A stretch of DNA of 64,000 bases from Rugalucina vietnamica. Taxonomy: Eukaryota > Mollusca > Bivalvia > Lucinida > Lucinidae. How positions within the stretch are numbered: the stretch's first letter is position 1; every line of letters begins with the position of its first letter. This document shows positions 18,101 through 55,600 of this stretch, one piece after another. The notes beneath the pieces are model-generated. The model ran no database searches. It was not told where the DNA came from and worked only from the letters and a program-made list of their open reading frames with translations. Position numbers and translations under genes: made by a program. The stretch spans positions 66,588,312 to 66,652,311 of the forward strand of contig OZ024870.1 of the NCBI GenBank assembly GCA_964017185.1, given 5' to 3'.

Positions 18101-21100
18101 TTACTGATCCATTTGTAAATATTTGTTTTGTAATGGATTGAATATGTGTGTGTTCTATGTGTTCTATGAATGTATGATTCTGTATAATGAATGTTTAAAT
18201 TGTGATAATAGTGTCTCGTAAGCCAATTATGGCTGGGTATCAACTCTTAGTCTTTAAAATGTTGTATATATATGTGATGTTGATATGTGACATTTTAATA
18301 AACTATTACTTACTTACATACTTACTGTATTTAGTACTTTCTAATTTATCTTATAAGTATTGTATTCTTTCTAAATTATAATTATTTCACATGTTTCAAT
18401 AAGCACACATACAAAATGAGCCTTGACGCGAGAAAACCGGTCTTCGGGGTTTCCTACCAGGTCCGACACATACCGGCCTGTACAAGCTCAGAAAAGAGCT
18501 AGAAGCTTGAAATTTCGGATTAAAGTAGAAGAGGAATTGTACTATCCGAGTAGCGAAAACAAAGGCGCTGATCAGCTTCGCGGTTACCGCGAAGCTGATC
18601 TGCGTCTTTGTTTTCGCCCATGCAAATTGTTGGTTTTCTCACGCACATGCTCAATTATAATTATTTCACATGTTTCAATAAGCACACATACAAAATTGTT
18701 TTCCAAACAACTTTTTCATAAACACACACACTGATTGGCTGTAATGTCAGTATTTACACAAGTTTTTGTCACCAGACTGTCTTAGTAGGTGTACTTAAAC
18801 TTAGCTACTAATGATCTAAAATATTTTACTATGGTTTAAATGATTGATTGGTTGATGTTAAACGACGCATCACCCCTAATGGGGCATTAGCGTCTAACAA
18901 AAGTAAGATGCATAATTTGGTTTACAATGGTTTGAATATGTGAAATACTCCACCATTTAGTTTTTTGGCCTTCTTACTTCAGCAATTTAGTTTTGGGGTC
19001 AATTTGTGCCAATTAGGAAGATATTTAATTGAGTATTTTAGGCAGCTTTAAAAACTTCTGCCCACAGTGCACTAAATAGATCACATACTGTAGATCAGGA
19101 GCGGCTCCCGTGACCGAGCGGTTAAGAGGGCTGTTTCTTAATCACTCGATCATTTCACTGCTGTGTCTGGTGTGGTTTCGAGCCCCGCACTGGCCACATG
19201 TGAGACAAGCCAAGTTTCCTGCGGGTGTGCCAGGTGTTTTTTTTCGTGGTTCTCCCATTTTCGCCCACCTACTGATTGGCCCGTCTCATATGAGCTGAAA
19301 TAATCTTGAAAGGGACGTGAAACTGAATTAAAAAAAAAAAAACAAAAAAAAAAACTGTAGATCAGTTCATTAAATGAGCCACCCCATGGGAAAACCAACA
19401 ATCTGCATAGGCGAAAACAAAGGCGCAGATCAGCTTCGCGGTAACCGCGAAGCTGATCAGCGCCTTTGTTTTCGCTACTCGGATAGTACAGTTCCTCTTC
19501 TACTTAAACCCGAAATTTCAAGATTCTAGCTCTTTTCTGTAACTGTACAGGTCGGTTTGTGTCGGACCTGGTCGGAAACCACATTGTTGGTTTTCCCACG
19601 AGGCGGCTCAAATGGAAATGGAAACCTTTCAATCATCCTACAGGACAAAGTGAATCATCAACCTGGCAAACTGGAAGTAGCCCAGCCCATAGCCAATCAA
19701 AATGGAGATGAGGGGGGAGGGAATGCCGATCAAGTTCTACCGGCCCCTGGGGGTGGGGACAGAGTGATGGATGATGGAAATGAAGAAATAGCAGACAAAA
19801 ATAAACAAATTGTAAGTTGAGCTATGTCATGAGAAAACTGGATTTTTGCTTATGAAAAATCAAAGGCGCAGATCAGCTTTGCTGCTGATCAGTGTCTTTG
19901 TTTTCGATACATGGATAGTACAATTCTTCTACTTTATAAATCCAGAATTTCCAGAACTGGTCGGAAACCCTGAAGACCGGTTTTATCATGTCAAGGCTCA
20001 ATTGATTTAAGACAAAGGATAATTTAAAAGCTAGCTGTTGGCACCTCACAACCTTGGTGTGGAGTTGTGGAGCAATTACTCCAAGAAATACAATATTATA
20101 TAAGAAAGCAAATTGTTAACGATATAGAAACTGCTCCCTTGTTTTGATTTCTGTGAGCAAGCAGATAAGGGATTCTCTTTGCACCCAGGCTTTTGATTTA
20201 AACTTTGATGAATTGGAAACTTATTTTAATTTCAGCCAATTTTTAGCTCACCTGAGCCGTCAGGCTCACAAGGTGAGCTTATAGTATACCCATGCTCCGT
20301 CGTCCGTCCGTCCGTCGTCCGTCCGTCGTCCGTCGTCCACCATTTTCAAAGATCTTCTTCTCTGAAACAGCTTGGCCAATCAAAGCCAAATTTTACATGA
20401 AGCATCTATGGGAAGGGGGAACCAATGTGTATATAAATAATCCAGGTCACATGACCAAGATGGCCGCCATGCCCATATATGGTAAAAACCCTTCAAAAAT
20501 CTTCTTCTCCGGAACCACTGGACCGATTTCAACCAAACTTGGCATGAAGCATCAATGACTCAAGTACTACAATGTGTATATAAATCATGACCTTGCTATG
20601 ACCTTGACCTATTTTACGGCAAGGTCAACATAGGTCGCCTTTGCATTTGAATGGGAAAAATTGTTGAATTGTCATTTAAAGGAAAAATCTTGCAGAAAAT
20701 GAGCAGTAGGACTGAATATTAATGATTCTGAAAAAAATTGGGCACCAGGGGCTCATCCGCCCCCACCCCGGGGCAATATACATGTATATCTCCATAATAT
20801 TTAAACATCTTCTCCTCTGAAACCACTCGGCCAATCAAAGCGAAATTTTATGTGAAGCATCAATAGGAAGGGGTAACAAATATGTATATAAAAAATCCAG
20901 GTCACATGACCAAGATGGCCGCCATGCCCATATATGGTAAAAACCCTTCAAAAATCTTCTTCTCCAGAACCGGTTGACCGATTTCAACGAAACTTGGCAC
21001 GAAGCATCGATGGCTCAAGCACTACAATGTGTGTATAAATCATGACCCTCTGATGACCTTGACCTATTTTACGGGAAGGTCAACATAGGTCACTAATGCA

Positions 21101-24100
21101 TTTGAATGGGGAAAACTTTTAAAATGTCTTTTAAAGTGAAAGTCTTGCAGGAAATGGGCAGTAGGACTCGATATTAATGATTCTGAAAAAAATGGGACCC
21201 CAGGGGCTCATGTACCCCCACCCCAGGGCAATATACATGTATATTTCCATAATATTCAAACGTCTTCTCCTCTGAAACCGCTTGGCCAAACAAAGCCAAA
21301 TTTTATGTGAAGCATCTATAGAATAGGGGAATCAATGTGTATATAAATAATCTAGGTCACATGACCAAGATGGCCGCCATGCCCTTATATGGTAAAAACC
21401 CATCAAAAATCATCTTCTCTGAAACCAATAGACTGATTTCAAGGAAACTTGGCGTGAGGCATCGATGGCTAAAGTACTCCAATGTATATATAAATCATGA
21501 CCCAGTGATGACCTTGACCAAGTTTATGGCAAGGTCAACATGGGTTGCCTATGCATCTGAATTGGGAAAACTGTTAAAATGTCATTTGAAGGAAAAAGCC
21601 AACAGGAAATTGGCAAATGGACAGAATATTGAAGATTCTGAAAAAAGAAAATGGCCCAAGGGCTTCATCTGCCCCTGCACTGGAGTTAAATACCATAATA
21701 TTCAAACATGTTTATTGGTATATGCAGCTGATCTCAGGTGAGCGTTTACAGGACCATTGGTCCTCTGGTTAGTGTCGGAATTTTATGATGAATAATTCAC
21801 AAAGATTTGTAAAATTGAGAAGATAATTCCAAATTCTATTGATAACATACATAGATTTCTAACATTTACTAATAATTTTATTCCAGGAGTCTCCAGTAAA
21901 GGAATCCTCGTCGTCAGGTTATGATTATTTCAGTGGTAAGATGGAGTTTATAATATATATTAGTACGGGTTCCATTAATGTAATGGTTTGAGCATCTACT
22001 TTGGTGGCGGGAGGTCATGGATTTGATCCCAGCCGGGTCATACCAAAGACTTAAAAAATGGTACCAGTGGCTACCTTGCTTGGTGCTCAGTTTGTAGCAC
22101 TGGATAATGCCTGTCATGTTGGTGACTATTGTTCACCCAGTCTTAATAAAGGCAAACCACCCATCAGGGGGTGGGTGGGGGAATCATGTATTGGTTTCGC
22201 ATCCAATCAGTCATATCAAGACACTTTGTAACTGTTACATCCCGTTATTATCTTTCTGTTATTAGCTTTATTTTCTTACCTTACTTGTACATCTACTTGG
22301 AAACAGATTTAAAAGTCAAAAAGAAGAAAATACAAAATATCATGATTTCTAAAATTTATAAATTGTTGTCCATTTATAAACTGTTGTACATGTAATTGCT
22401 TTTTATAGGCATGTCCGCAAGGGAGTATTTGATGAAAAAAAAAAAGCATTGTCAGTACTTTATAAAAAGTGTATGTTCAACTAGGTTGTAGGTAATCGGT
22501 AGAATGGCCTCTTTGATGCGGCTTTTATTAGCACTCACCTGACCACAACAAATATTTTAATGAAGAATAAGCAAATTACAAATTATCAAGTACAATGGTC
22601 GCAGTGTTTATTGACAAACACCTCCCGATGACCAGCATTGTCCGGTTTTAACTGTTTTGTTAACAGAACACAGAACCAAAATTACTTTTGCCATGACCTG
22701 AGGACATGTTGAAAAATAGCAGTATAATAATCATCATTTGTCATCAATACCCTATATCTGGTCTTCTGAAGCTGTGCAAGTTTAGCCTCATTTTAAGACA
22801 CCTCATTATAGTGCGGTTTTCAATATAACATGGCTTATGTTATGGCCCCCCAAAATGATCATTTTGCTGTATGTCTATTGTAAATAACCTCATTATTTCA
22901 CGGTTTCACTTATGTTATATAAGTTATAACATGGTCTGTTTCTGTGGACCCCGAAGATTGTGGTATAATGAGGTTGACCTTACATTGCATCTATGTATGT
23001 TTGTCTTGGCCCATATTTGGGAGTATTTGTTTGTAAATTGCACTCCAACATCAAGTTATCAGAACATGAGGTTTCCAGTTACATGTACATTTATCTACTA
23101 TTCAAATTTCAGAGAATCGTGTTCACAGTGAGGAACAGAAGGCTATAATACAGGCCTTTAAGGATGCCTGGACTGCGTATAGACAGTACGCCTGGGGCCA
23201 TGATGAGTTCCACCCCATAACTAAGAAATTCTCCGAGTGGTTCGGGGTGGGGCTAACTATACTGGATTCTCTGGATACTGCAATAATCATGGGGCTAAAG
23301 AAAGGTACTGTATATTTTTTGAAAGTTCCTCATCAAAGCTTTGGGAGGGCGAAAAAAGGGAAAAAAGGTAACTTTTTAATTTAATATGTGCTGCATCATG
23401 AGACAACTGGATTTTTGCATATGCGAAAGCCAAAGACAAGAATCAGGAATGCAGTAACTGTACAGCTGATCAGCGCCTTTGTTTTCCCTACACAGCTAGC
23501 ACAAACACTCTTTTTAAATTCAGAAATTTCAGTCTTCTAGACTTTCGTGATTATACAGACTGATTTGTGTCTGACCTTGTTGTAAACCCAGAAGAAAATA
23601 TTTGTGATGACATGACTTATATTGTCTTTCTTGCATAAAATAGATTGGCATTTTATTATATAGCTATAAATATCAAATGATTAAAATATAGGGATAAAAG
23701 CCAAGTAACAGGTGTGCCGTTATCAGATGATACTTTGGTAAAAGCGAAAAGTTATTTTTGTAAAGCATTGCCAGATTCTTGACTTGAGGGTCATGATGCA
23801 AAATTGTAAATTTGGGACATCAATTCTAATGACGTCATCTTTACCTGATGCCATGTGGAAAATGATGTCATAATTATTATAGGGCCGAAATGTCAGCTGA
23901 AGTTTTACACTTACAGATTTAAACATTTTAAGCCGAAAAAGAAAAGAAAATGGCAGAAATATTGGTTCAATTGCAAAATTTGCTTCCGAAAAGTAACAGT
24001 GCAAAAATGATATCTGATATTGCACTAGTGCAAAAATGATATCACTTATGGATATTATCGCGGCCTTCATGTAGAAATTTCGTTTTCTAATGTTTACTCT

Positions 24101-27100
24101 CAACAAGCATCAAATATGAGAAGCAGATATTTATAGCTATATAATAAAAGTGTTATCACACTGATATCGGTGAGTATTGTCCCTTGTTGGGATATCGATG
24201 GACGCTCACAAGCGATATCCCAACACGGGACAATATTCACCGATATCAGTGCAATAACCCTATGATATTATATGAGTCATGTCACACAAACAAACTGTAA
24301 ACATAGGATTACTACTTTTACTATTTGATATCACAGAATATGACCAGGGTAGAGAATTTATTGAGAATGACCTGACCTTCGACAAGAGCACGGATGTAAA
24401 CCTGTTTGAGATCACAATTCGGGTCCTTGGTGGTCTACTTAGTGCTTATGCTCTCACTGGGGACACATTATACAAGCACAAAGCTGTAAGTTGGTAGTTT
24501 CTTTAGGAAAATGTGTCTATGAAATATATATAGGATATTTACTTTTTTGAGGTGAATATCAAATATATTTCATCGAGTGAGTTGAAAACATCAAAATTTT
24601 CACGAGTGCATAGCACGAGTGAAAATTTAGATGTTTTCAAGTCACGAGATGAAATATATTTGGTATTTACCGATAAAAGGTAAATTTTCTTTTTATTCTA
24701 TACAATACACGGGCATTTTCCTATTCACAAAGCAGGCGGTGAAAATGCAAAAACCAAAAATTTTTGAAAACACATATAATTTTGGTACCACATTGTTCCT
24801 AACGTTCTAAATAAGAAAATGAATACCCACACTATGTTTTCGTTCATTAATAACGGAGTTATAGGCATTTGAATTTCTGAAGTGAGGCACATTTAATGAT
24901 GTCAAGTGAATGGAAACGTCAGAAGTAATCCAAACTCTACAGTGAAAATATCGGCTGATATCAATCACTAGTGAAAATATCAATATCAATTCTGCAGAGA
25001 AAATATCACTTTTATCCATTTTTGATATACATTAATTTCACTGCTAAGTATAAAATAAACAGAGATTTTTTACAGCTGTCAAAAGTGAACATTGTCATTG
25101 ATTAATTTGGCTATCTGTTATATTTTTGCTCTAAACAAAGATTATAGCTTCAGGTTAGAATGTGTAGCCACAATTTATATGATGAAAAAATAAGAAAAAA
25201 ATGTTAACCTTATGTGCACCCTATTTTTACTATATGGTGTCCAGTGTAAGGGGTTCACATAGCGGTGTAAGGGGTGTAAATTGCGTAGAGATGTTATCCT
25301 GATATTTGAGCCTCCTCATGGGAAAACCAACAATCTGCATAGGCGAAAACAAAGGCGCAGATCAGCTTCGCAGTAACTGCGAAGCTGATCAGCGCATTTG
25401 TTTTCGCTACTCGGATAGTACAATTCCTCTTCTACTTAAATCCGAAATTTGAAGCTTCTAGCTCTTTTCTATGCTTGTACAAGTCAGTTTGTGTCGGACC
25501 TGTTCGGAAACCACATTGTTGGTTTTCCCACGAGGTGGCTCATTTTACTTTCTTGGGAGTTATTTCATTGGTATTTTATGTCTGAAAGGCATGATTTCCC
25601 CATAAAATTACATTTATAAATGCATTTAGGAGTTTTCGTGAAAAATGATGGAAACAACTACAATGTAATTATCTCATTGTCTTTTTAATACAGAGATTTT
25701 AACTGTTAGACTTAGAAGCATCTGCAGAAAATATTGTGTCCTCATGTGTACAACTGCTTACACATATTTCATTAGATAATGCAATAAAAAGTAAGGAATC
25801 TGATAACCTTTGACTTAAATGTATTTGGGATTAAAAGGGGGAGTCAGAAAGGCCTCTTATATGAGTTAAATTGATTGATATTGAAAGCATTTTGTTATTG
25901 CTTACATACATATTCTTATTCCCCAGAAAGAACTAGGGGACAGACTCCTCCCTTGCTTCAGTAGTGCCTCCCATGTCCCTTATTCTGATGTGAACCTGAA
26001 GACAGGCCAAGCCCATCCCCCACGGTGGGGCCCTGATAGTAGTACGTCGGAGGTCAGCACAATACAGATAGAGTTCAGAGAACTTTCACGGGTCACTGGA
26101 GATGATAAATATGAGGTCAGTTGAAGTGCTGCTCCTTAATTAAACATGTGATATCTTTCTTTCTTAGAGGAATCTTCCTTCTTTTTAGAAAGTCCCTCTT
26201 TTTTGAATTTCAGAATTTACTTAAAAGTCTTATACATTTTGAATTTCAGATCTCGCTACCAAATATCAAGAATTTCCTTCTTTGTTGAATCATGCTACCT
26301 ATTTTGAAAAGGAAATCTTCATATTTGGCTTCCATGATGCATCAAATGTTTACCCTACATTGTTAAGAAAGTATGTCTCACAGGTTACTAACAAAACCCC
26401 TAGGAACCAAACCCCTAGATTAAAACTTTTGCGTGCTCATTTCCGCTCATTAAAAATTGATCATAAATATTGAAATGTGGATTTTTAGGATTTTTAAGAT
26501 CACCAAAGCCAGTCATTTATCCTGCTGATAATGTTAAAATGTCAACCGTTTCAAACATTTTTTTAATTGAATGTAAATTTTGAAAATGTAGTATTGCACT
26601 TTACTTCAATATTACATGGTATATTTCCAACAGAAAGCAGCCCACCAAGTATCCATGCATCTTCACTCCCAGCCAAAGAAGGATGGATTGGTTCCTATAT
26701 TTATCAATGCTCAGACTGGTGCTCTGCGTAGCTCAGCGACAATCAGTGTCGGTGCACGGGGGGATAGTTACTATGAATATCTACTCAAACAATGGCTACA
26801 GACAGATAAGGGAAGCATGATGTAAGTTGACTGTGATATGATAACATGCATATACAACCTACAGTGATGTTTACTACTTTGCATGAGTGTCAGACTACAA
26901 ATTGTGCAGCCCTAAGTTCAAACCCAGCTGAAACCATGTTGTGTCCTTGAACAAAATCCATTACTGTATGTTTGGAAATGTTCATGAGAAGATTTTCACA
27001 ACTATTCGTGAGTTTGCATACATGTGATATCGTCTTTGGCTATTTACTTTAGCTATTACTTTTAATAGCTGGTACCGCATTTTTCTGGTTCGATAACGCA

Positions 27101-30100
27101 GTTGCTCCCCCTTATTCTAACCGTTTCGTTCCCATAGTTTGTAGGTCGTAAAATTTACCCGACTTTTTGCCTAACGCTACGTTCGACGCAAGTGGCATTT
27201 TCATGTGTATGAAATACCCGTTCAATCTGATCTTTCGGAACTATATATGGCGTTTGTTTTAATGTTTTAAACTTAATCATTTGATGTCGCTTTCACCCAA
27301 TTATCGCTGGTCACTAATTTTGGCCCCGAGCTCAAAATCAGAAAATTGTTACGCAGTGTTAAACAACAGACGGACATTATTACAGCAAATTGCACAATGT
27401 CAAAGCGGTTTCGGTAGATTATTGAGAAGCTCCGCCCACGCGTTAGTTAGAATGGGCCAATCAGCACGTGTAGCATAAATTACTGCGATGTTTACGCAAC
27501 ACATTAAAGCGCAAGGTTATCAGTCCTCACGTTTCAGTAACTTTCACATTTTTCCGAGAAAATTGTTTTGATAACTAGGCAATTAACAGGGGCAATTATC
27601 ATGTTGACACGTGTGACATAGTGGTATATTGCGTCTGAAACTTGTGAATATAAGGACCAATCGAACAAAAAAAAAATGGCAAACTTTTTTCAGGGAAAAA
27701 ATCGGAAAAAAATGTTTTTACTGGGACCGATAAAAATGCATAAAAACGAAAGATAAATCGGTCCCACATGTTCAAAATGCCCGATAATCTTTAAAGGACA
27801 ATCATAATTAATTGTCCTATTAAGATTATCGGCAATGTTTTATCCAAGCCCTCCAAATTAAAGACGCATTAATCCTCTTTCTAAAGATGAACTCTGATCA
27901 AATTAGCGGTTTACATTATACACTGTACCTGTAAGACTGACAATTTGTTGCATCATTAATCCCTTCTGGCTTCGCCAATTACCCAATAAAGTGACATGTC
28001 ATCTATTCTCCATTGTCTCCTAAATTACTCCAAGGTATTTATCGGATCAATGATCAATAACATGTACCGTATATTACCGCAAAATTAAAAATGGAACATT
28101 GCCGAAAAATTAGGATAGGCAAATACTGAAATCGGGAGATTTTGGCTCTACTGGGCTCGTCGGGGGGCAATCGGGTTAGGAAGCCAAAAATCGGGCAAAC
28201 TCGACGAGATCGGGAGATATCACATGTATGGAGTTTGTTGTCTCGCAAATTTAATGTTATTGGAAATAAAGAATCTATAGGTCACAAAGACTATGCGAAC
28301 ACTCTATTACAAATTCATCTTGAATTATTTGAAAAATGATAATTTTGTTAAATAAAAGTCACATTAAAATTTCCAAATTTACAGTAATTTTCCGTAGAGA
28401 TATCTCTCCGTAGAACTGAGATGAGATCTTTAAGAGCAGAATGTGGTGGGTTCTTTCCAAAAATTACTGACGCAGGAAAAAAACACAGTACAAACAAATA
28501 ACTAAAAATATGACTCTTAAAACATACTGTGCTGGTACAGCGTATTCATTAGAACATCATCCAAGCACAACATATTATGATTATGGTGTCTTTGTTTTTG
28601 AGGAAAAAATAAGGATAGTGTTTTCATCTGTAGTCTTGAATTTTACCACACTGTGGAAAATGAGTGAATCATAATGACCGGCTCACTCAAATCTTGTGAT
28701 AATGGCAACATTTCATTGTTTGCTACTTCCTATCAAGGTTTGAGAAGGATTACCTAGAAGCAGTTGAAGGCATGAAGAAACATCTGCTGAGAAAATCTGA
28801 GCCGTCTAAACTGACCTACATCGGGGAACTGCTAGGGGGAAGAAATTTCAGTCCAAAAATGGTAAAACGTGTTTGTTGTGATGTTTTACATTCACAGTCA
28901 ACAGCTAAGCTCATTTGAGCCGCGCCGTGTGAAAACGTGATTATTGCCTATGCGAAAACAAAGGCGCAGATCAGCTTCGCAGTAACTGCGAAGCTGATCA
29001 GTGCTTTTGTTTTGGTTACACGGATAGTATATTTCCTCTTCTTCTTATATCCGAAATTTCAAGCTTCTAGCCCGCTTCTGTGACTGTACAGGTCAGTTTG
29101 TGTCAGACCTGGTCGGAAACCCCGAAGACCGGTTTTCTCGCGTCGCGGCTCATTTATCCTAGCAACTTGATTCCTGGACAGGCCTCCATTTTTTTTCACC
29201 ACTAAATGAGCAGCCTCGTGGGAAAACCAACAATGTGGTTTCCGACCAGGTCCGACACAAACCGGCCTGTACAAGCACAGAAAAGAGCAAGAAGCTTGAA
29301 ATTTTGGATTTAAGTAGAAGAGGAATTGTACTATCCGAGTAGCGAAAACAAAGGCACTGATCAGCTTCGCGGCTGATCTGCGTCTTTGTTTTCGCCTATG
29401 CAGATTGTTGGTTTTCCCATGAGGCAGCTCAAATGACAGATGCTCTTCTTCAATCAGAAAAAGAGGATAAATGGTCAAAGAAATATTTTTGTCACCAAAT
29501 GTTTATGAAAGAAATATGCCGGACAGGAGGATCGCTCACAGGTCTGCTTGAAATGGCTAGTTCCGCAATTTGTGAACATAAACTGCCGCAAAAATGTGCA
29601 TGGCAACAAAATGGTGAAATAAAATAAGTTGGGTAATAGTATTAAACCTGAAACACTTATTTTTACGCCCTAGATCTATATTGGTTGACTGCATTCTAAG
29701 TTTTGATTGGTGGTAGTTAGTGTAAGGCTCATTAGAATCACCTAAAGGAATTTCATGGAAAAATGGAATAAAATCACACCTGAAGCCCCAAAAATGAAAA
29801 TGGACTCACCCAAATGATAATGATGGGTGAATCCATTTGTCATTCATGGATTAATGTTGCAGGATCACCTGGTGTGTTTCCTGGGTGGAACCCTGGCCCT
29901 GGGATATCTCAACGGTATGCCTGAGGACCACCTTGAGTTGGGGAAAGAGCTGACGAGGACATGCTATGAGATGTACGACAGAATGCCAACCAAACTCAGC
30001 CCGGAGATTGTGTTCTTTAATCAGGCTGAAGGAGCCGCTGAAGATCTGATTGTGAAAGTAGGTGTCAGCAATGAGTATTTTGACTTGGGTTTCTTGTGTA

Positions 30101-32602: not shown

Positions 32603-34392
32603 CGAGGTCAGTCCCAGTAATACGTAAATAACGGCTGTTAAAGGCAGAAGGGACTATTATTTAAAGAACTGATTTAATGTATATCCTAAGCAACCATTTA
32701 TCAACAATTCTGACAAATTTTATCAGCATACCTTTCATTATAGTAAAACTACAAACACTTTTGAACGGTTCTGTAAGTGCGACCGGCGCAGCTAGAAACG
32801 TACTTAACGTAACGTCAACGTCAACAATTAATGTTCTTTTTCAAAATATTCACCGTCAAGTTTTACGCATTTCTCGTGTCTTCTCACCCACTTGTCGAAA
32901 ACAGTCTGGTACCACGTCTAGGGAAGTGTTCTTATGAATGCCAAGCTGCCATGTTGAGTTCCGTGGCATCAGAAAATCTGCCACGTAAATGCGATTTCAA
33001 CAACAGGAAAAAGGCGAAATCCAGAGGGGCTAGGTCGGGCGAATAAGGGGGGTGCACAATCTTCCTAAAGCCAAGTACGTCAATCTCAAGCTGCGTCTGC
33101 TGGGCTGTATGGCTAGGGGCATTATCTTGGTGCAATATAAGATTTTCAACATTGTCGTAGAGCTCGGGGCGCTTCTTCCATAGGGCGTTCATTAGGTCCC
33201 GGCGAATCACCTGAAAATAGAGAAACAAACGAATGTGTTAAATAACAAATCATATAAAAAAGCTTTCATTGTTGTGCTAGCAAAATAAATAAATAAATAA
33301 GCAGATAAATAAATAATTCACATACATGTACCTTCGAATAGTAAGCAGAGTTCACTGTCTATCCCCTTGATACCACGTGCGTCAGGAGCATCCTGTGCCT
33401 GTCCATGAACATCATGTACATTATCTTTCCCATTGATTTCGTCACCTTCGCCTTCTTTGGGGGTGGGGTTCCGGGTGTTTTCCAAACACTTGATTCCCGC
33501 TTTTCCTCTGGTTCATAGTAATGAAGCCATGTTTCGTCGGTCGTAACAATTCGATCCAGAAAATTTCGTTTTCTTCGGGCTTGTGCTAAGAATGCACGTG
33601 ATGCTTCCAACCGCTTCACCTTTTCCTCGGCAGTAAGCAGTTTCTGAATCCAACGGGCGCTCACCCTAGACATTGAAAAATCGTCACTAGATTTTCCACA
33701 ACCGATGACATCTGTGACTTCTGGAACTGTATGTCGTCTGTCTTTGTTGATGATCCTTTGGACGTCTTTGACAATGCATTCATCTTTTCCTTTCGGTCTG
33801 CCTCCCGAGTTTCTTTCTGGGGATCTGCGCTTAAACCATCAGAATATCGGAGATGCCACTTATATACCAATGCTCTGAAAACGTTCTTGTGCCGTTCGGT
33901 AGACTGCATCTTTTTCTGCGTTTCAACTGGTGTCAAGCCAAGATCAACACAAAATCGAATCACTCTTCTGTGCGCCGCGATTTCTTCCGACGTTGCCATT
34001 TTTCTTAAATTCAAATACGGGTTTACATGCAATGTTATGCACCTTTTCGATATAAACGACGTCAGTTGTTTGAAACTTCGTTTGGCGACGTTGGAACAAG
34101 TGACGTCGACGTCAGTATAAAGTTTTAGTGGAAAAAAATATTCCAAAATTAGGAAATATGCCAAATCTTTCATAATAACATAAAATTCATGATGCAATTT
34201 GTTTGCTGCGCCAGTACCCCACACCCTGTGTTAAATAGACAGCCATGTTGTTTTGATTATAAATAAACCTACTAAACTTATTGCATAAACGTCCTGAGAG
34301 ATGTTTCTAATACTGTGAAAAGTTTCAGTGATCTAGTACGTCCGGTTTGTATTGATAATGAGCATGTCTACGTATTTCTGGGTCAGGCCCCT
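32603..34392 (-). mobile_element. Mariner-family DNA transposon, decayed
   Basis: Bounded by TA dinucleotides (32601-32602, 34393-34394) and inverted ends CGAGGTCAGTCCCAGTAATA / AGGGGCCTGACCCAGAAATA that continue into ACGTA. Tc1/mariner elements duplicate TA on insertion. About 1790 bp, carrying one minus-strand transposase pseudogene. Confidence 0.92.
32932..33999 (-). pseudogene. Mariner transposase pseudogene with an intron-like gap
   Basis: Starts at MATSEEIAAHRR (33999). DNA-binding segments follow (LVYKWHLRYSDG), then the catalytic region VTTDETWLHYYEPE, then ILHQDNAPSHTAQQ and HPPYSPDLAPLDF. The spacing fits a mariner DD34D core. Breaks: a frameshift near 33770, an in-frame TAG near 33361, and a 121-bp segment (33211-33331) that interrupts the frame between NSAYYSK and VIRRDLM. 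That segment begins GTACATG and ends TTTTCAG on the coding strand, like an intron. Not functional as it stands. Confidence 0.88.
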
Positions 34393-40420: not shown

Positions 40421-40990
40421 AAACTGCGGTAACTCAGTTTTTGAAAACTTTTCAGGAGAGACAAAAAACTTTCTCATTTTGTTCATTACAGTCAAATTAA
40501 ACTGAAATTCACAAAATTAGTAGCTTACAGTGCAATGGTACAGTGGAAAGTGATATAAAACATAACAAAATATTGATGCAGTAATTATTAACCAAAATCA
40601 TAGTTACCGCATTCTTGCATTCAATTATAGACAAAATATTTGAGCTCAAAACTATTGTATGTTGAGTTACTACAGTCTTACGTTCAAATATTACCATTAT
40701 AGACAAAAAATGTTATGCAAAACTGTTGTAACTTGAGCTACCGCAGTCTTGTGCTCAATTATTACTATATATAAACAAAATATGTTAGTGCAAAACTGTT
40801 GTATCTTGAGTTACTGCAGTCTTGCGTTGAATTATTACTATATATAAACAAAATATGTTAACACAAAACTGTTGTATCTTGAGTAACCGCAGTCTTGCAC
40901 TCAATTATAGCTGTTATAGACAAAATATGTTAGCGCAAAACTGTTATATTTTGAGTTACAACAGTTTTGCAATTCATAAAGCTTCTGTTT
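40421..40990. repeat. 73-bp tandem array
   Basis: Units contain (G/A)CAAAACTGTTGTA(T/A)CTTGAG, CGCAGTCTTG and AAACAAAATATGTTA. Anchors fall at 40717, 40790, 40863 and 40935, a 72-73 bp period. More decayed units lie on both sides. Confidence 0.9.
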
Positions 40991-41217
40991 GCTTATGAAA
41001 AAGTTAGTACAAGACTGTTGTATCTTAAATTAAACCCCCTTTTTTCAATATTAAAGCATGGTAATTTGATTTTTGTATTCAAAAAGCTAAGTAGCAGGAA
41101 TAATTCTTTAAAAAATGCACCCAATGGGGGTATGTTTACCCCCTTGTATACCCCCTTACTAGTGCTACCATCACCATGCTAGCAGCCCCTGTGTCTGAGT
41201 TGTTAGGACGCTGACAC

Positions 41218-45204: not shown

Positions 45205-46125
45205 AGCAAAGCTCACATACCCCCGGCGGTAGCCATCAGAGGTGAAATGGATAAATAAAGGGAATGATATGCCAGAGATTGTTGATTCTCAAATACACAA
45301 TACAACTTGACATACTTTAGCTATGTACTAAATTTTAAAATTCTAGGTTAAGTAGTTCCTGAGTAATCTTTGACACAAAAAGGTGCAGATTTGTATAGGA
45401 GTGACAGATGGGAAAAGAAACAAAGTAAAAAAAAGAAGACAAAAGTAAACCACAGAATCATAATCTTGTTTTCAGTAATAGAGTTGGTCATTTTGAACAT
45501 GCATGTAAAATTTGAAGTTTCTAACTCTTATACAGACTGAGCTGATATGATGGAAAAATTTCTCGGATAGAGAGAAAAATGGATAAATAAAGGGAATGAT
45601 ATGCCGGAGAATGTTGATTCTCAAATACACAATACAACTTGACATACCCAAGCTTTGTACCAAATCTTAAAATTCTAGGTTAAGTAGTTCCTGAGAAATC
45701 TTTGACACAAACAGGTGCAGATTTGTATAGGAGTGACAGATGGGAAAAGAAACCAAGTTAAAAAAGAAGACAAAAGTAATCTACATAATCATAATTTTGT
45801 TTTCAGTAATAGAGTTGGTCATTCTGAACATGCATATAAAATTTGAAGTTTCCAACTCTTATACAGACTGAGCTGATATGATGGAAAAATTATCGGATAG
45901 AGAGAAAAATGGATAAATAAAGGGAATGATAAGCCGGAGATTGTTGATTCTCAAATACACAATACAACTTGACATAACCAAGCTTTGTACCAAATTTTAA
46001 AATTCTAGATTAAGTAGTTCCTTAGAATTCTATCTTTGACACAAAAAGTTTACAGACAGACAAACAGACGGAAAAAGCAAAAACTATATACCCCCTAATA
46101 CTTCGTATGCCGGGGGTATAAAAAT
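45205..46125. mobile_element. Tandem element, 331-bp units between CCCCCGGC ends
   Basis: The left end CATACCCCCGGCG (45218) and right end GCCGGGGGTATA (about 46110) are inverted. Between them about 2.5 units start GGATAAATAAAGGGAATGAT at 45249, 45581 and 45911. No coding region. The architecture resembles the 455-bp-unit element though the sequences are unrelated. Confidence 0.85.
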
Positions 46126-46171
46126 TTTGTATTTGCACTCACCTTACAAAAATATTAAGTCATCATTTTGT

Positions 46172-46177: not shown

Positions 46178-46455
46178 CACAAAATTCCTGGCAAAATTCA
46201 ATTTTTAGATTTTTATGAGAGCAGCAGACTACAATAACTCTTGATATCTTCCCGAAATTAACACCTGCTAGGCTATTTTTGTCTCTGACAGTTGACACCT
46301 AGCTCATCACTTCCTTATATGGAAGTAAGCATGAGGCATACATTTCTATTAGCTAAAACAGAAATGATTGACATTTTGAGACAGCTAAAATTGTACTAGT
46401 ACTGAGACAGAAATATCTCAGACAGGCACACAAAGGGATATGCTTGTCTGGTGGG

Positions 46456-46586
46456 TGAGAAAGTACAATTCCTCTTACTTTCTAAATCCAAAATTTCCAG
46501 CTTCTTGCCATCTTCTGTGCTTGTACAGCTCATTTGTGATGGACCTGTTCTGAAACCACTTTGTTGGTTTTCTCATGACGCGGTTC
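46456..46586 (-). mobile_element. MITE family A, right-end fragment in the UCHL5 3' region
   Basis: GTACAATTCCTCTTACTTTC to TTGGTTTTCTCATGACGCGG. It lies 50 bp past the UCHL5 stop and so probably in its 3' UTR. Confidence 0.8.
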
Positions 46587-46635
46587 ATATACTTTTTATG
46601 TACCTGATCCTGTTTTGTTACTCTGCAGACAGATC

Positions 46636-49600
46636 TCATTTTGTCTTGGTCTTCTCTTTTTCTTCTTTTCGTTTTGCTGCCTTTTCTTTTGCCTGGTAAT
46701 ATAGAAAAGGTCTTTTTTCTGTTATATGGATATCCATGAAATGTATAAACTCGATAACACCCCAAATTCATACAATAAATGATGTATGCGTTTTTTATCT
46801 TATTTTACTCCAAAACATTGACTGTTTATTCGTTAGAAAGACTGTCTTGCAGAGGCGGTTATAATATGTAACCACAATCTATGTAAATTTTTCAAATGAA
46901 AATTATCATTTTTACAGCAGAAAAATATTGTGTATGGCATAGGCTTGTTATCATCATATTATAAGTGCCATTAAAGCAAACTTCAAGAAATAGCAATTGA
47001 AGAAAATTTAAAAAAGACACCCAAAACCGACAATTGTCCAAGGGAGGTAATTATGTTTTGTCCACTTACCTTTTCCACCAATGGTAGTAACTGTCCTTGT
47101 TCTGAGAGGATTTTAAGGAGTTCCATTATGAAAGGGAGGTAATTGTGTTTCCGTCTTATATTTTCTATCTGCAACAATAACAACAGTTAAATATAGCATT
47201 TTTATATCAGAAATTGATTAACTTATAAAAATACAGTTGCTTTAAACCCTGGCTTGTCAATGAAAGTTGACCTTTTACTTCACTGCATTATATGTGCAAG
47301 TAAGCAATGATCAGGAAATGGCACAATCAGAAAGAAAATCCCACTCCAAAAACCCTGGGAAAAACTACTTCTGAGAACCTGATACATCAGCAATCTCTCA
47401 TGCTTCTTTTTCTTTTGTTATTTACATTCCAGTGTGCAATTTTATTCATGTCGGGACATCTGTATCCTGTGTATAAACCAGTACCATGAGAAATTAGCGT
47501 GTGTTGCTCAAGGAAAGTTCATACTCAATGCCGGTGGTGTACCCTCAAATCCCTCTCCAGAATCCAAAAACTCTTCTACAAGGCAACTACACACTAGCTC
47601 ACTACCCTACCCCCATCTCTTATGTACCTTTCTGTTTTTTGTTTGTTTGTTTGTATTGAGGTTCAACATCCCAACCACCAATTTTTCAGTCATTTCGGGA
47701 CGGAGCCACCACTTCCTGGGTATTAATCAGTACCCTGTGGAGTCAATGTGGTCCTTTTCTGTGCCCATGCAATAAACATAGATTTTTGTGCTTTAAAAGT
47801 TGAACAATTTTCAGCTGAAAAATTTTGATATTTTTCTTATTTTTGCTCAAACATAGATTGTGGGTACTCGTTAGAACTGCCTCGGTGAGGCGGTTCTAAC
47901 GAGTACCCACAATCTATGTTTTGGAGCAAAAATAAGAAAAATAGGTATACCCCTGCATACCCCAGTTTTACTATACAAAAGTGGGGTTTATGGGGGTATA
48001 TATTGCATGGACATGTTTTCCTGATGAATGGCCATCTACTTACTCTATATTTCTTCATTTTTCTTTCTTCATCTTTAATCATCATCTGTAACTGGCTGAT
48101 CTGTGTCTTCACAAGGTCTGTCTCCATGCCACTCGACTGAAAACATCAAACGGAGCTGGTATACATATAGTTAGTGGTTTGAAATTAGGTCTGTACAATC
48201 ATTAAAAATGTAACAGGCTTGTTATTTCGGAATAACATATGCATGTAGTTGAAATTACTGCTTAAATTTATTAAAACAAACAACCCCATGATCCTAGTGA
48301 AACAAACCTGTTTGATCATCATCTGTATTACGGATTGTTTCCATACCAATATGAGCCGCCTCATGAGAAAACGAACAATCTGCATATGCGAAAACAAAGA
48401 CGCAGATCAGCTTCGCTGTGACCACGAAGCTGATCAGCGCCTTTGTTTTCCCTACACAGATAGTACACTTCCTCTTCTTCCTAAATCCGAAATTTCAAGC
48501 TTCTAGCCTGCTTCTGTGACTGTACAGGCCGGTTTGTGTCGGACCTGTTTGGAAACCACATTGTTGGTTTTCCCACGAGGCGGCCAATATACTGCTTAGG
48601 AAAAGCCCTTGAATACTACCTCTGTTTTCACTGTAAGTTCCTTTAATCTCTTTTCATAGCTCATTTTTTTATCTGACACTATCGCCATGAGATTGAAATG
48701 TATTTCATCACCACTGTATCTGAAAACAAATGGGTGGCATCATGAGAAAACCAGCTTGCAAAAACAAAGACACAGATCAGCTGTGCAGTAACTGTACAGC
48801 TGCTCAGTGCCTTTGTTTTTTGCTTCACAGATAGCACAATCCCTCTTTTTTTAAAATCTGAAATTTCGAGCTTCTAGCCTTATTTTGTGACTGTACAGGC
48901 CGGATTGTGTCGAACCAAGTCCAAAGCCCTGAAGGCAGTTTTTTTCATGGCGTGGCTCAAATATTATTCATTTCAACCAATTTTGACAAAATTTTACCAT
49001 CTTTGGATAAGTCCATTTTTATGCTTTGGGGCATCAGGGGTGATTTTTTTTCAAAATTTGTATCCTGGAAACAAACAGAATAGTCTAAGATAAGACGCCA
49101 CCTTATATCATTTTTTTTTTCTAGGACAGGATTTTGTTTCTGACTGCATAAGATCCAGATCAATGCTCATTGCTGATAATTAATAAAAATTGAAATTATT
49201 GTTTTGATAAAACTAACTAATATTAATAGTTGATGCATTATAAAAAGTGAAAAAGGCAACCTCATGAAAGATTACACAAACAAACTACTCTGGGAGTAGA
49301 ACTTACTTTTGCATTCGTTTTTCCAGCACTGGTTTAACATGGTCTAACCAGTCACCATCTGCTGGTATAGCACCTGGGAAAAGAGAAATTACATTATTTT
49401 TTATCTTTTTTTTTTTTTTTTTTTGTTTTAATTTTTTTAATGATTTAACATCCCAGTCAACAACTTTTTCAGTCATGTTGAGATGGAGTCATCTCTTCCT
49501 TCGTACTAAGGGAGTTAACCTGTCCTGCTAAAGGCACAACAGCGGGTTCCACCCAAGTACCTCTCAATTAAATTTGGAGTTAAAACTGCATCACTAGGCC

Positions 49601-52600
49601 ACTGCACACTTCTGTATTTTTTGTTTTATTGCTTTTTTTCATGTAAGAGGATCCATCACAGGTCTGTTTCAATATGAATCAGACACACTATAGAGATATG
49701 AGCCCTCTCATGGAAAAACCAACAATGTTGTTTTTGATTTTGAACAGGTCCGACATAAACCGTTCTGAACAGCCACAGATGACAGCTAAAAGTTTGAAAT
49801 TTCGGATTTAAGAAGAAGAGGGATTGTACTATCCGTGTAGCCTGGAAAACAAAGGCGCTGATCAGCTTCGCATTTACTGCGAAGCTGATCTGCGCCTTTG
49901 TTTTCGCCTATGCAGATTGTTGGTTTTCCCATGCAGTGGCTCGTATTGTGCCAAGCTGCCCAGGGGCCAAGATAAACTAATACACATGTGCCATCTTGTT
50001 TGTAGAGGTGACAATCTATATGGAGTTAACCCACCAAATGAGCACTGTGGCACAAAGACTGTGGTAGCAACTCATAATTCTACTTTAGCTCACGGGCATG
50101 ACTAGATAATGTATAAAACCAACTTAAATTTATTGGTCCATCTTTTAAGCCATCTAGTACGTAGAGTCTACTGTCTACAGGGAGATAACCCACAAAATGA
50201 AAACCACCTTGCATACACTGGGATACATAGGAAGATTTACTTTGAATGATTAAACAAAGGGGAATTCTGACATTCCAAATAGGGAAAATTGCTAAAAAAT
50301 AGGAAGATCATTCAAAAATAGGGAGATATCACATGTACGATCATACCTAAATCTAATGGTCCATCTTTCAAGCCATCTAGTTCATACAGCCTACCATCAA
50401 TGGGGAGATAACCCACAAAATGGAACACATCATCATCTTTCTTGGCTAGTTTTTCATCAAACTCAAACATCTGCTGTCTGAAAACGGTAGAGAAATATCT
50501 TTCTTTCATTTTTCTTTACATTTTGTTTTTTGGTTCAACATCCCAGTCAACAATTTTTGGTTTCTCAGGTATCAACCAGTACTTTTGGGCATTGAGGTGT
50601 CACTCAAATATACATTTTGGCATCATTGGGTCTTGAAAACCCAAACCTCTTGAATTTTTGCTCAACATAGTAACTGGTAGGTCACCTTACTTCCTGTCTT
50701 TCAGGGAACCAGTTGTTCAAAATTAATGATGTCGTTAGTTAACGATTCGTTAAAATTTGAAATGGCAATATTACAAATACACTGTTATTTTTGTTGATAA
50801 AATGTGAAAGGATTCTCACATTTTATCAACCAAAAATAAGAGTGTATTTGCTTATGTAGTCGGCATTTACTTAAGGAGTTGAGGTCTTAACGATGACGTT
50901 AAGCTAACAAAGTTTTGAACAACTGGGCGCAGTTTAATCTTTTATCAACCCATTAAAACCTACACTAGTGCATTATCGATATGTACATGTGCACAAAACA
51001 TGGTATATCTAAAAGTTGGGAGGTTTTTAAGATTATTTTGATACTTTTCAAATTAATAACTAAACATTGGCAATTCACATGAGCCGCCCCATGAGAAAAC
51101 CAACAATGTGCAGAGGCGAAAACAAAGGCGCAGATCAGCTTCGCGGTAACCGGAAAGCTGATCAGCGCCTTCGTTTTCGCTACACGGATAGTACAATTCC
51201 TCTTCTTTCTAAATCCAAAATTTCAAGCCTCTAGCCATCTTCTGTGACTTCACAGGCCGGTTTGTGTCAAAACTATTCAAAAACCACATTGTTGGTTTTC
51301 CCACGAGGCGGCTGATATTTTGACCATTTTACCTTGAAAAACTGTTGTGTACTTGTCTGATGACATCTGAATTGCTGAGACTCAAACCTCGTAGCTGAAA
51401 TGATATAACACACCATGAGATATAACCCGTCTTTTAAGGTATGCAAAAGCAAGACTCAGATCGCACATTTGCTTATGTTTAATGGATAGTTAGTACAATC
51501 CCTGTTCTTTCTTAAGTCCGTAATTTCAACAGTCCAGCCTTCTTCTATGCCAGCAGGTTTGTTTTGGTTCTGGTTGGAAACCTTAGAAACAGTTTTCACA
51601 CTCTTGTGATGCAGCTCATATGAAATGAGCCACGACACGAGAAAACGGTCTTTGGGCAATTCGACCAGGTTTGACACAAACCAGTCTGGACAGTCAAGGA
51701 AAAACGCTAGATGCCTGAAATTTTGGCTATAAGTAGAAGAGGAAATGTACTATCCGAGTAGCGAAAAAAAGCCACTGTTCAGCTGTGCAGTTACTGCACA
51801 GCTGATCTGCGCCTTTGATTTCACGTATGCAAGCTCCCAGTTTTCTCATGACGTGGCTCAAATATCAAGTCTGAAGAATGCATTAAGATTTTGATTCTAT
51901 TAAGCTTAATTTTGCTGATTTTTATCTAAATATTGATTGCTAAGCCAATCTTTTGTTCTTTTTTAAAAGGCTATATTAAAGGTTTATATAATGCACAAGT
52001 GCTCCCTTGCCAAATCAAGAACTAACTAATTATTTGGAAAAAGAAAATTAGTGAAATAAAAGTCACACAAAAATTTCCAAATTGCCTGTAATAAAGAGGT
52101 TCAGGTCTAGTTCTGTAAACAAATTTTAGACTTACAGCAGGATCAAAGTTCTGTGAGAATTCTTTGAAAGATGATAGCGTATCTCCTAGCTGTAGATCAG
52201 GATGTTTGCAGTTTAACAGGACACTCAGTATCGCTTGTGTGGCACAGGCATTGTTGATCACCTGTGAGGAAATGAAAACATGAATACATGTTTATGAAAT
52301 ATAATTATTATGAGCTGCCTCATGGGAAAACCAACAATGTGGTTTCCGAACAGGTCCGACACAAACCAGCATGTACAAGCACAGAAAAAAGCTAGAAGCT
52401 TGAAATTTTGGATTTAAGTAGAAGAGGAATTGTACTATCCGAGTAGCGAAAACAAAGGCGCTGATCAGCTTCATGGTTACCGCGAAGCTGATCTGTGTCT
52501 TTGTTTTTGCCTATGCAGATTGTTGGATTTCCCATGAGGTGGCTCATATAGCTAAAAGAAAAGGGTTATTTTTTATTATTTTCTTCTTCTTTTGCTGTAT

Positions 52601-55600
52601 AGTCGAGTAAATATTGTGACTACATCAAAGCAGCAATTCTCTATTTATTTCTAGGACATTACGAAAACACGCCCATGCAATATACAGAGATTTTTTGACC
52701 CTAAAAAACTGAAAATTTTTGGCTGAAAATTTTGACATTTTATTTATTTTTGCTCAAAACATAGATTGTGGGTACACGTTAGAACCGCCTCGCCGAGGCG
52801 GTTCTAACGAGTACCCACAATCTATGTTTTGGAGCAAAAATAAGAAAAATAGGTATACCCCTGCATACCCCAGTTTTGCTATATAAAAGTGGGGTTCAGG
52901 GGGGTATACATTACACGGACATGTATTCATGATGAGGTTCCATCAATTCATTTTTAAGAACAGAAAGTCATGTATTCCAGAACAACTTATAAACAAAACC
53001 GGCATCCATGTTTTTTTTAAGTGTTTCAACAGAATTATTTTGGTTGTTTGATTTGTGGCATAACTTCCCAGCCAACATTTTTTTAGTCATGTAAGGATGG
53101 AGCCACTGGTTCCTTGAAAATAATTAGTACTGTGGGGAGTTCATGTGTCATGTTCAAAGACACAATGCGGCATCTGTGTCTGACACCTTACCACTGGGCC
53201 ATTGCGCTCCCAAGTTTCAGCTTAATAAAACAAAGTGTTGTTCATGTTACCTGTTTGGCAAAGAATATTTTCTCCAGCCTACTATCTTGAACTAATGAAC
53301 CTTCTGATTCGGTGTCTGGTACCCATTTGAACAGAAATATCAACCCATGTACTGGCCTAAAATATAAACACACATCTATAATGGCTTAAACAGGAATGTT
53401 AAGCCAAAATCAAAATTGGTTTGACAGTATTGATTATAATATTGTATTTGTTTCACTTTAATATTGTATTTGTTTCACTCTCTAGAGTCTAGACAGTATT
53501 GATTATAATGTTGTATTTGTTTCACTCTCTAAAGTCTAGACCAAATCTGTATAAAAAATTGCCCCGACCTAAAGTTTTGTCCAGTTTATGTTGTGTTTTT
53601 TGCAAATATCAATTTAGCATGAATGTTAAACGTAATCAGTGCAGCAGACAGCAGTGTTATCCTCTTAAGACTTTTTATTTCATGTTTTAATTTAAAAGCA
53701 ATAAAGTTGATTGGGTAGAAAAGTTGAGGTCTTTAAAAAACATATTTTTCAAATGATAAACCCATCCTGAGAAATGGCATTATGTTACTTAGGGTCTTGG
53801 CCAAGTGGAAACAAGAATACACATATTTCCCAAGTTGGTATAACAGTCAAATGCTCTGATCTTTAATACAAACTCATCAAAGACCCGATTTCCCATGTGC
53901 TGGGTACTTGGCTTGATCATTCCCATGACAACATCTGACTGCATCACCATGCATGTGCTGTTACAGGGCTTTATGCAGGTATTTTGGGAATGGAGCCTTT
54001 TTCTTAAAATTGGGAAAATATTCTGCTATTTGGGAATGAAAATTGCAGGTGTAAGTTGACAAAATTGGGAATTTTGCATGATTTTAAGAAAATTTTAATA
54101 GGAAAAGGGGCCTCTTTTCTGTCCCTGAGGATACCTGGATAAAGCCCTGTGTTATTGCTGTATATATGTTGACTGATATGTCACTTTCTGCAATCTAAGT
54201 TTCTGAATATATTAAAAAAGCTTTGACTTGACTTTGATTTTAATAAAATTCAGACAGTGGCAAACAATCTACATGATCTAACTTATCTATGAATACAAAG
54301 TTCAGGTAATTAAGTTGTAATCTAGATATATGCTGAATAAATTTATGAAAGACATGTCCATTAGACTTTAAGTTTCACTGTGAATGCCTTACTTGAGATT
54401 GGCAAAGGTTTCTTGATCAAGACTCCATATTTCTTCTACTTGAACCCCTTGACAACCTACAAATAGTTAACTGACAATTGAGCCTCGACGCGAGAAAACC
54501 GGTCTTCGGGGTTTCCGACCAGGTCTGACACAAACCGGCCTGTACAGTCACAGAAGCAGGCTAGAAGCTTGAAATTTTGGATTTAAGTAGGAGAGGAATT
54601 GTACTATCCGTGTAGCGAAAACAAAGGCGCTGATCAGCTTCGCGGTTACCGCGAAGCTGATCTGCGTCTTTGTTTTCGCCTATGCAAATTGTTGGTTTTC
54701 TCATGCACAGGCTCATATCATTTGATGTTTTATTTTACTTTTTTTACCAAGACATTCAATTTCTAACCATTAGGCCATTGTAAGTTCTGCCTTAATTAGC
54801 AGCTATCGAAATGTGAATTTACGACAGCATTTATATGAATACCGCATTCATTCTAATTAGCGACAGTGCGCTTAAATTTTCAAAATAACTTTAAAAGTTA
54901 TCGTAAAAACTAACAAGTTTACTTACCATTCTAATTAGCAGACACCATGAATGAAAACAAAATATCAATTGTTGGTGTTCCCATCATTGCAAAATAGTGT
55001 CTGATCATTTAAGGCTACAACTTAAGGCGGGGCCGCAGCAGCTACAGTAAAATGGGTTAAATACCAAAATGTATGGCTCCATTTTAAAAGTATAGGCAGG
55101 TAAGAATCTATACCATATAGACAAGATGGTCAGTAGCAGTTTTTACACACCCTTGGGTTTGTTTCATTTTTTTGCTCCTTCTTGGTATTTTTGGAAAACG
55201 CCACTCAGCCGTTTTATAGCTGAGAAGGCCTGTAAAAACAATCCGTAAAAATAATGAAATGCACATGGAATCCTATTTTTATGACAGTGTCAATTATAGT
55301 CCGGCACGAATATGGCATATTTTCGATGGACCTGGAAGTCAGGTATAAAGTTTTTTTCTTGATGGATTCTTGTAGGGAAGACATTGCCATTCATGAATTT
55401 GAATGATGACAGCCTGTCATCATTGAGCATTTTGAGAAATTCAAGATGGCGTCCAAGATGTCTAAATGATGAGAATACATATGGTCTGCTATACAGTTTG
55501 TCCATAGAATGAATGAAAATGCTGTGTTACCTCACAACTTTATTGGGTATTAACACAACTTTCTTCAGTTAATACTTTCTGGTCTGAAAACCAAGGATGG

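What the first reader, a model, noticed from the sequence alone, without database searches (positions are those of the whole stretch)
19376..54714. MITE family A copies crowd against splice sites of both genes
Distances between a copy and the nearest exon edge: MAN1B1 exon 3, 34 bp before and 7 bp after; exon 9, 55 bp after. UCHL5 exon 2, 23 bp; exon 4, 50 bp; exon 5, 19 and about 22 bp; exon 8, 12 and 34 bp. A family C element also ends 17 bp from UCHL5 exon 9. By my rough count, nine of about 34 copies lie within 60 bp of an exon edge. Random placement over 47 kb with 22 exons would predict about two. Three exons are wedged between two copies. The MITEs may insert in exon-near open DNA, supply branch points and polypyrimidine tracts, or carry splicing signals, as introner elements do.
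Basis: partly seen in the sequence, partly recalled or inferred. Interest (0 to 1): 0.78.

Follow-up and report, generated by a model that had tools for sequence, protein, structure and literature searches.

The report
Old MITE copies pinned beside exons
In this animal genome, old copies of a very common small jumping element sit unusually close to exon edges; this looks like a by-product of introns having grown from short beginnings, not a sign that the element aims at splice sites or helps splicing.

Summary
Both gene models are sound. Nine of the 16 family A copies in introns are within 60 bp of an exon edge, against 1.8 to 3.2 expected.

It also holds outside the window. At 229 exon edges of chaperonin (CCT), kinesin and myosin genes of the same genome, chosen without regard to the element, copies occur at 1.82/kb within 60 bp and 0.58/kb at 60-1500 bp (ratio 3.1, gene-bootstrap 95% CI 2.1-4.6). 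At that rate the window's 9 of 38 edges is only mildly unusual (P=0.019).

The interpretation mostly fails. The excess is confined to old copies (ratio 4.9). Young copies show none (1 near, 14 far; ratio 0.5). Other repeats share the excess (2.8). Target-site preference gives about 1.3x. The branch-point-like element end is no better kept at acceptors. A simulation of uniform insertion into introns that grew from 100-150 bp reproduces the pattern.

Unexplained: five of the window's nine near copies are young (P=0.005 within the window), far more than in the unbiased sample.

The parts
19376..19609 (-). Family A MITE copy, 34 bp before MAN1B1 exon 3; young (0.94 identity to consensus)
19644..19811 (+). 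MAN1B1 exon 3, between two copies
19819..19999 (-). Family A copy 7 bp after MAN1B1 exon 3; old (0.78). Its left 4-bp flank (AGTT) overlaps the donor GTAAGTT; right flank AATT
28738..28861 (+). MAN1B1 exon 9
28917..29151 (-). Family A copy 55 bp after MAN1B1 exon 9 (0.854)
48353..48584 (-). Family A copy 35 bp after the UCHL5 exon 8 donor; young (0.927)
48620..48719 (-). UCHL5 exon 8, between two copies
48730..48958 (-). Family A copy ending 10-12 bp before the UCHL5 exon 8 acceptor (profile match 48737-48958, end extended by eye); old (0.786). The branch-point zone lies inside the element
51081..51313 (-). Family A copy 19 bp after the UCHL5 exon 5 donor (0.888)
51333..51394 (-). UCHL5 exon 5, between two copies
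51411..51616 (-). Degraded family A copy 16-22 bp before the UCHL5 exon 5 acceptor (0.725)
52312..52545 (+). Family A copy 50 bp before UCHL5 exon 4; young (0.91)
54480..54714 (+). Family A copy 23 bp before UCHL5 exon 2 (0.876)
47763..48030 (.). Family C palindromic repeat ending 13-17 bp from UCHL5 exon 9; relatives of it also abut sampled exons elsewhere

Best explanation
Family A is a very abundant 234-bp MITE: terminal inverted repeats of about 34 bp, 4-bp target duplications mostly AAAT/ATTT/ATAT, and a 65-bp internal palindrome. It inserts roughly uniformly into introns. Introns in this lineage were once short and grew by repeated insertion of many repeat families. A copy that landed early, when the intron was perhaps 100-250 bp long, was necessarily close to an exon. 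Later insertions mostly landed further in, so they diluted the interior but rarely came between that copy and the exon. Selection removed only insertions closer than about 7-15 bp. The result is a belt of old copies 15-60 bp from exon edges on both sides, with no targeting and no splicing function.

Shown here, in the genes sampled: the belt, its two-sidedness, its restriction to old copies, its sharing by other repeats. Inferred: the growth history, the ancestral intron size and the role of selection.
For: The excess occurs in unbiased CCT and kinesin exons and in the pooled 229 edges (bootstrap over 57 gene clusters CI 2.06-4.58). Old copies (identity under 0.87): 24 near, 34 far, ratio 4.86, P=5e-8. 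Young copies: 1 near, 14 far, ratio 0.49; at a cut of 0.85, 2 near, 18 far, ratio 0.76. Abundant repeats other than family A: 19 near, 43 far, ratio 2.76, P=5e-4. Donors and acceptors are both raised, 2.3x and 3.9x. Target-site preference adds about 1.3x near edges. Simulated uniform insertion into introns growing from 100 or 150 to 1300 bp gives 0-60 bp ratios of 3.2 and 2.4, a peak at 15-30 bp, a dip under 15 bp, and the excess in old copies.
Against: In the window, 5 of 9 near copies are young, against 1.5 expected from introns without family A (P=0.005). Taking the unbiased rate of young near copies as 2 of 229 edges gives P=2e-5, and P=0.006 at my upper bound for that rate. The window was flagged for its pattern, which may explain this but was not tested. 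Introns without family A are 251 bp or longer in the window, and a 250-bp start gives a simulated ratio of only 1.8. Ancestral intron size was not measured. A plain rank test of identity, near against far plus background, is only P=0.096. Protection of exon-flanking DNA from deletion predicts much the same.
Confidence: 0.55

Rival explanations
1. Deletion protection: insertion is uniform, but intron interiors lose old DNA by deletion, while deletions beside exons are purged, so old copies survive longest next to exons.
For: Old-only excess, both exon sides, shared by other repeats.
Against: By my reasoning (not simulated) it should give at most about two-fold, falling off over the deletion length; the observed excess is about 6-fold at 15-30 bp and gone by 100-200 bp.
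Confidence: 0.2
2. Insertion preference for exon-flanking DNA, for example linker DNA beside the nucleosome that covers an exon, or DNA opened by transcription.
For: Both exon sides are enriched; 5 young near copies in the window; introners are reported to prefer nucleosome linkers (PMC9860276, passages seen).
Against: Young copies show no excess in the unbiased sample: 1 near where about 2 are expected with no preference and about 10 at the old-copy ratio. Other repeats share the pattern.
Confidence: 0.12
3. Splicing role: element ends (GGCTC followed by the A of the duplicated target) act as branch points and copies are kept by selection, or copies drive intron gain as introners do.
For: The 16 near element ends on the acceptor side lie 11 to 54 nt before the exon. 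In 3 of 119 unbiased acceptors and in UCHL5 exons 5 and 8 the branch-point zone is inside the element.
Against: CTCA is present at 9 of 16 acceptor-proximal ends against 79 of 138 far and background ends. Donor edges are enriched as well. Where both intron ends are known (9 window, 6 of 25 unbiased near copies) the element supplies neither intron edge outright.
Confidence: 0.05
4. Chance in this window plus a sampling accident elsewhere.
For: The window was picked because it looked striking. On raw HMM match ends without any splice-site choice the contrast is weaker: 24 copies at -20 to 80 bp, 15 at 80-180 bp, P=0.10.
Against: CCT and kinesin genes each show it; pooled P=1.1e-5 and none of 5000 bootstrap samples at or below 1. 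The raw distances listed still fall from 22 copies at 0-59 bp to 10 at 60-119 and 7 at 120-179.
Confidence: 0.03

Closest known systems
Miniature inverted-repeat transposable elements (MITEs), reported as a considerable share of bivalve genomes (PMC10294476, passages seen)
   Same: Short, terminal inverted repeats, fixed-length target duplication, no room for a transposase, very high copy number.
   Different: Superfamily and autonomous partner not identified; target duplication of 4 mostly A/T bases; 65-bp internal palindrome.
Introners (PMC9860276, passages seen)
   Same: Some are MITE-like with target duplications and inverted repeats; some recruit a splice site from the duplication.
   Different: Introners are themselves the intron. 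Here each copy whose intron is known at both ends is only a part of a larger intron; one copy's duplication overlaps a donor (19819-19999).
Exon-near under-representation zones of transposable elements in mammalian introns (PMC3088655, passages seen)
   Same: Same measurement: element density against distance to the nearest exon.
   Different: Opposite sign: mammalian element classes are depleted within zones of 50 bp or more of exons; here old copies are enriched at 15-60 bp.

Membership tests
MITE | Terminal inverted repeats | tested here: met
   Positions 1-34 and 209-242 of the query match each other inverted at 91-94% in several copies.
MITE | Target-site duplication of fixed length | tested here: met
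   Of 106 full-length copies with enough flank, 73 have a perfect 4-bp duplication and 25 match at 3 of 4. Among the 73: AAAT 24, ATTT 21, ATAT 17. Other lengths were not scored.
MITE | Short, non-coding, many copies | tested here: met
   234-bp consensus, too short for a transposase; 3595 first-look candidates, a lower bound, 40 scored; about 0.55-0.78 copies/kb in the CCT and kinesin stretches and 0.60/kb around 30 copies.
MITE | Mobilised by a known autonomous transposon | not tested
   No partner was sought.
Introner | The element itself is the intron, with splice sites at or near both its ends | tested here: not met
   Both intron ends are known for the 9 window cases and 6 of 25 unbiased near copies. 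The far end of the element lies 216 bp or more from the other splice site in those window introns and 332-859 bp in the 6. For the other 19 unbiased copies only the near splice site is known; it lies outside the element.
Introner | Creates a new intron in a formerly continuous exon | not testable with these tools
   No related genome is held to show the exon without the intron.
Introner | Insertion biased to genes or nucleosome linkers | tested here: inconclusive
   Density around 30 copies chosen by similarity (0.60/kb) is close to that in sampled introns (0.58/kb); nucleosomes were not examined.

The most novel reading that the evidence does not exclude
In this lineage exon-flanking intron DNA, from which mammals purge transposons, is a long-lived refuge for them, and the ends of one MITE family have taken over the branch-point zone at a few percent of acceptors (3 of 119 sampled acceptors have the element within 15 nt). 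In some genes, such as MAN1B1 and UCHL5, young copies may still land there preferentially.
Probability: 0.18. Interest if true: 0.68.

Novelty: new member of a known kind. Interest (0 to 1): 0.42.

Why it matters
Element-to-exon distance can be read as insertion preference or function, using a null of random placement in present-day introns. Here that null gives a false sign of targeting: splitting copies by age removes the effect for young ones. The age split is a cheap test for any genome whose introns grew by insertion. The sign is also opposite to that reported for mammals, which makes it testable whether small DNA elements are better tolerated near splice sites than retrotransposons.

Tried and rejected
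(2) Target-site composition as the whole cause (about 1.3x). (3) Self-clustering of copies: 54 neighbours in 90 kb around 30 copies, no short-distance peak. (4) Branch-point selection. (5) A first reading of the CCT loci that showed little excess; it was wrong because I had taken loci as strand-turned. A joining script stopped on this, one search showed that loci are in + orientation, and redid the count.

Weak points: exon edges outside the window come from HMM match ends plus a splice-site score trained on the window's 19 introns. Only edges scoring 4.5 or more were used: 66 of 88 possible (CCT), 130 of 184 (kinesin), 33 of 56 (myosin). This filter drops near copies too: of 4 family A hits in the myosin stretches 1 was counted, and two others lie 29 and 54 bp from raw match ends. 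The ratio is 2.5 and 3.6 at stricter cut-offs. Without any splice-site choice, on 81 single-exon kinesin and myosin stretches, 24 copies lie at -20 to 80 bp and 15 at 80-180 bp (P=0.10). Kinesin and myosin stretches have only 260 bp of flank, so far copies there are undercounted beyond about 150 bp; restricted to 0-60 against 60-200 bp, P=0.0017. Copies with fewer than 100 aligned bases were counted as old: 2 of 25 near copies are that short, one of them 0.889 identical over 72 bp; counting it as young gives 2 young near. The age cut was set after seeing the identities; 0.85, 0.87 and 0.88 agree.

Papers: the listings showed no report of this pattern in a mollusc; that covers only the held open library and those terms. 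Passages were seen in three papers.
Full report
WHAT WAS CLAIMED. A MITE family (A) crowds against splice sites of MAN1B1 and UCHL5, which might mean insertion into exon-near open DNA, branch-point supply, or introner-like behaviour.

THE WINDOW. MAN1B1 exons 2-11 lie on the + strand at 17105-30867 and UCHL5 exons 1-11 on the - strand at 61797-46636. Both join in frame with GT-AG introns and match their Pfam families. nhmmer with a profile from 30 genomic copies plus window copies, merged by hand, gives 35 family A copies or fragments. Sixteen are in the 19 introns (26,108 bp). Nine of the 16 are within 60 bp of an exon edge: 7, 10, 16, 19, 23, 34, 35, 50 and 55 bp. Placement within the same genes gives 1.8 on average (0 of 20,000 reach 9). 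Shuffling within each copy's own intron gives 3.0 (P=5e-5). Introns stripped of all family A copies give 3.2 (P=6e-4). Exons 3, 5 and 8 are each between two copies, both in the same orientation.

THE ELEMENT. The consensus is 234 bp, GAGCC...GGCTC. The termini match inverted over 34 bp, and positions 40-104 are self-complementary. The target duplication is 4 bp: of 106 full copies 73 match perfectly and 25 at 3 of 4; among the 73, AAAT 24, ATTT 21, ATAT 17. The genome (1.09 Gb, 47 contigs) gave 3595 first-look candidates, 40 of them scored. Density is 54 neighbours in 90 kb around 30 copies (0.60/kb) and 0.58/kb at 60-1500 bp from sampled exons, so the window's 0.53/kb is ordinary. If that density held throughout, the family would make up over a tenth of the genome (inference). 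The sequence style suggests a bivalve mollusc; that is recalled and was not tested.

GENOME-WIDE TEST. Exons were chosen by protein family, without regard to the element: CCT PF00118, kinesin PF00225, myosin PF00063. Exon edges were set by the HMM match plus a splice-site score. CCT: 66 edges, 7 copies within 60 bp, 1.77/kb. Kinesin batch 1: 60 edges, 9 copies, 2.5/kb. Kinesin batch 2: 70 edges, 8 copies, 1.9/kb. Myosin: 33 edges, 1 copy, 0.51/kb, and none at 60-400 bp of accepted edges. Pooled, 229 edges: 0-15 bp 2 copies (0.58/kb); 15-30 bp 13 (3.78/kb); 30-60 bp 10 (1.46/kb); 60-100 bp 10 (1.09/kb); 100-200 bp 14 (0.61/kb); 200-400 bp 8 (0.32/kb, undercounted because many stretches end there); 400-800 bp 11 (0.58/kb); 800-1500 bp 12 (0.65/kb). 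The 0-60 against 60-1500 bp ratio is 3.13, P=1.1e-5. Acceptors 3.9 (P=5e-5), donors 2.3 (P=0.03). Bootstrap over 57 gene clusters: 2.06-4.58; 20 of 57 clusters have a near copy. A check that uses only raw HMM match ends, which blurs the edges, gives a weaker contrast: 24 copies at -20 to 80 bp against 15 at 80-180 bp, P=0.10, at 162 ends. At the measured rate (25 of 229 edges) the window's 38 edges should show 4.2 near copies; 9 has P=0.019.

WHY. Four tests separate the explanations. (a) Target sites: a model of the insertion site predicts 1.3-1.4 within 60 bp of edges against about 1.1 further in. (b) Other repeats: abundant repeats other than family A, found by comparing each intron flank with all other fetched DNA and the window, also begin within 60 bp of exons more often than further away (19 near, 43 far, ratio 2.76, P=5e-4). 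They include relatives of family C and several other families. Their ends are BLAST ends, so less exact. (c) Age: copies under 0.87 identity to the consensus are 24 near and 34 far (ratio 4.86, P=5e-8); copies at or above 0.87 are 1 near and 14 far (ratio 0.49). Near copies are less often young than far and background copies together (Fisher P=0.004); a plain rank test of identity gave P=0.096. (d) Splicing motif: CTCA at the element end is present at 9 of 16 acceptor-proximal ends and 3 of 9 donor-proximal ends, against 37 of 68 far ends and 42 of 70 background ends.

A preference of the transposase should show in young copies, and does not. A splicing role should favour acceptors and keep the motif; donors are enriched and the motif is not kept. 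What fits is history. A copy that enters a short intron is near an exon by necessity and stays there, while later insertions dilute the interior. A simulation of uniform insertion, forbidding only the outer 10 bp, gives 0-60/far ratios of 3.24, 2.44, 1.81, 1.52 and 1.23 for starting introns of 100, 150, 250, 400 and 700 bp grown to 1300 bp. For starts up to 400 bp the peak is at 15-30 bp, and the excess is mostly in the older half of the copies. Smaller starting introns fit better; 250 bp times the 1.3 of target sites predicts about 2.4, inside the confidence interval (my arithmetic). Protection of exon-flanking DNA from deletion would act in the same direction and cannot be separated here.

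WHAT DOES NOT FIT. Five of the nine near copies in the window are young (0.876-0.94), where 1.5 are expected from introns without family A (P=0.005; for old copies 4 seen, 1.7 expected, P=0.047). The unbiased sample has 1 young near copy, or 2 by a looser rule, in 229 edges; taking 2 of 229, five in 38 edges has P=2e-5. The window was flagged for its looks, so some of this is selection. I cannot exclude that these two genes attract young copies near exons.

SPLICING IN PARTICULAR EXONS. In 3 of 119 unbiased acceptors (element ends at -11, -15, -15) and in UCHL5 exons 8 and 5 (-10, -16), the region 18-45 nt before the exon is inside the element, so the branch point is probably there (inference). 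The copy at 19819-19999 has its left target duplication overlapping the MAN1B1 exon 3 donor (AGTT within GTAAGTT, right side AATT).

COMPARISON. Introners are themselves introns (PMC9860276, passages). Here, wherever both intron ends are known (9 window cases, 6 of 25 unbiased near copies), the element is only a part of a larger intron. In mammals elements are depleted near exons (PMC3088655, passages); here old copies are enriched.

VERDICT. A real pattern, found in the window and in two of three other gene families sampled, with a mostly passive explanation. The element is a new member of a known kind. Interest is moderate because the sign is opposite to mammals and because the age split exposes a pitfall.

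Noticed in passing
50110-50220 (-): Partial duplicate of UCHL5 exon 6 (reads [29 protein letters not shown]) between exons 6 and 7, behind a possible acceptor; may be a pseudo-exon or an alternative exon.
   Followed up: no
L051-L053 and L046 (contig C8, near 61.64 Mb): A chaperonin (CCT) gene with tandem matches to the same profile stretch: three of positions 37-80 and seven within 228-291.
   Followed up: no
G000 contig C10, 15533131-15534957: Seven tandem matches to one kinesin profile stretch (positions about 148-213) in a kinesin gene.
   Followed up: no
18380-18690: Family A copy 18418-18651 sits between two copies of a roughly 38-bp direct repeat, much longer than the usual 4-bp target duplication (by eye).
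   Followed up: no
32750-34010 (-): By eye, a mariner-like transposase reading frame (begins MATSEEIAAHRRVIRFCVDLGLTP); label recalled, not tested.
   Followed up: no
4580-8130 (+): Broken open frames with reverse-transcriptase-like stretches of a LINE, by eye.
   Followed up: no
62680-63900: Degenerate TAACCC arrays inside the chromosome, resembling telomere repeat.
   Followed up: no
508-970; 20345-21646; 40624-41026; 45245-46048: Tandem arrays with periods of 62, 455, 73/146 and 332 bp.
   Followed up: no
L152-L171: Myosin exon surroundings are poor in family A: 4 hits in 20.8 kb (0.19/kb) against 0.55-0.78/kb in CCT and kinesin stretches; three of the four lie within about 55 bp of an exon match.
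   Followed up: partly
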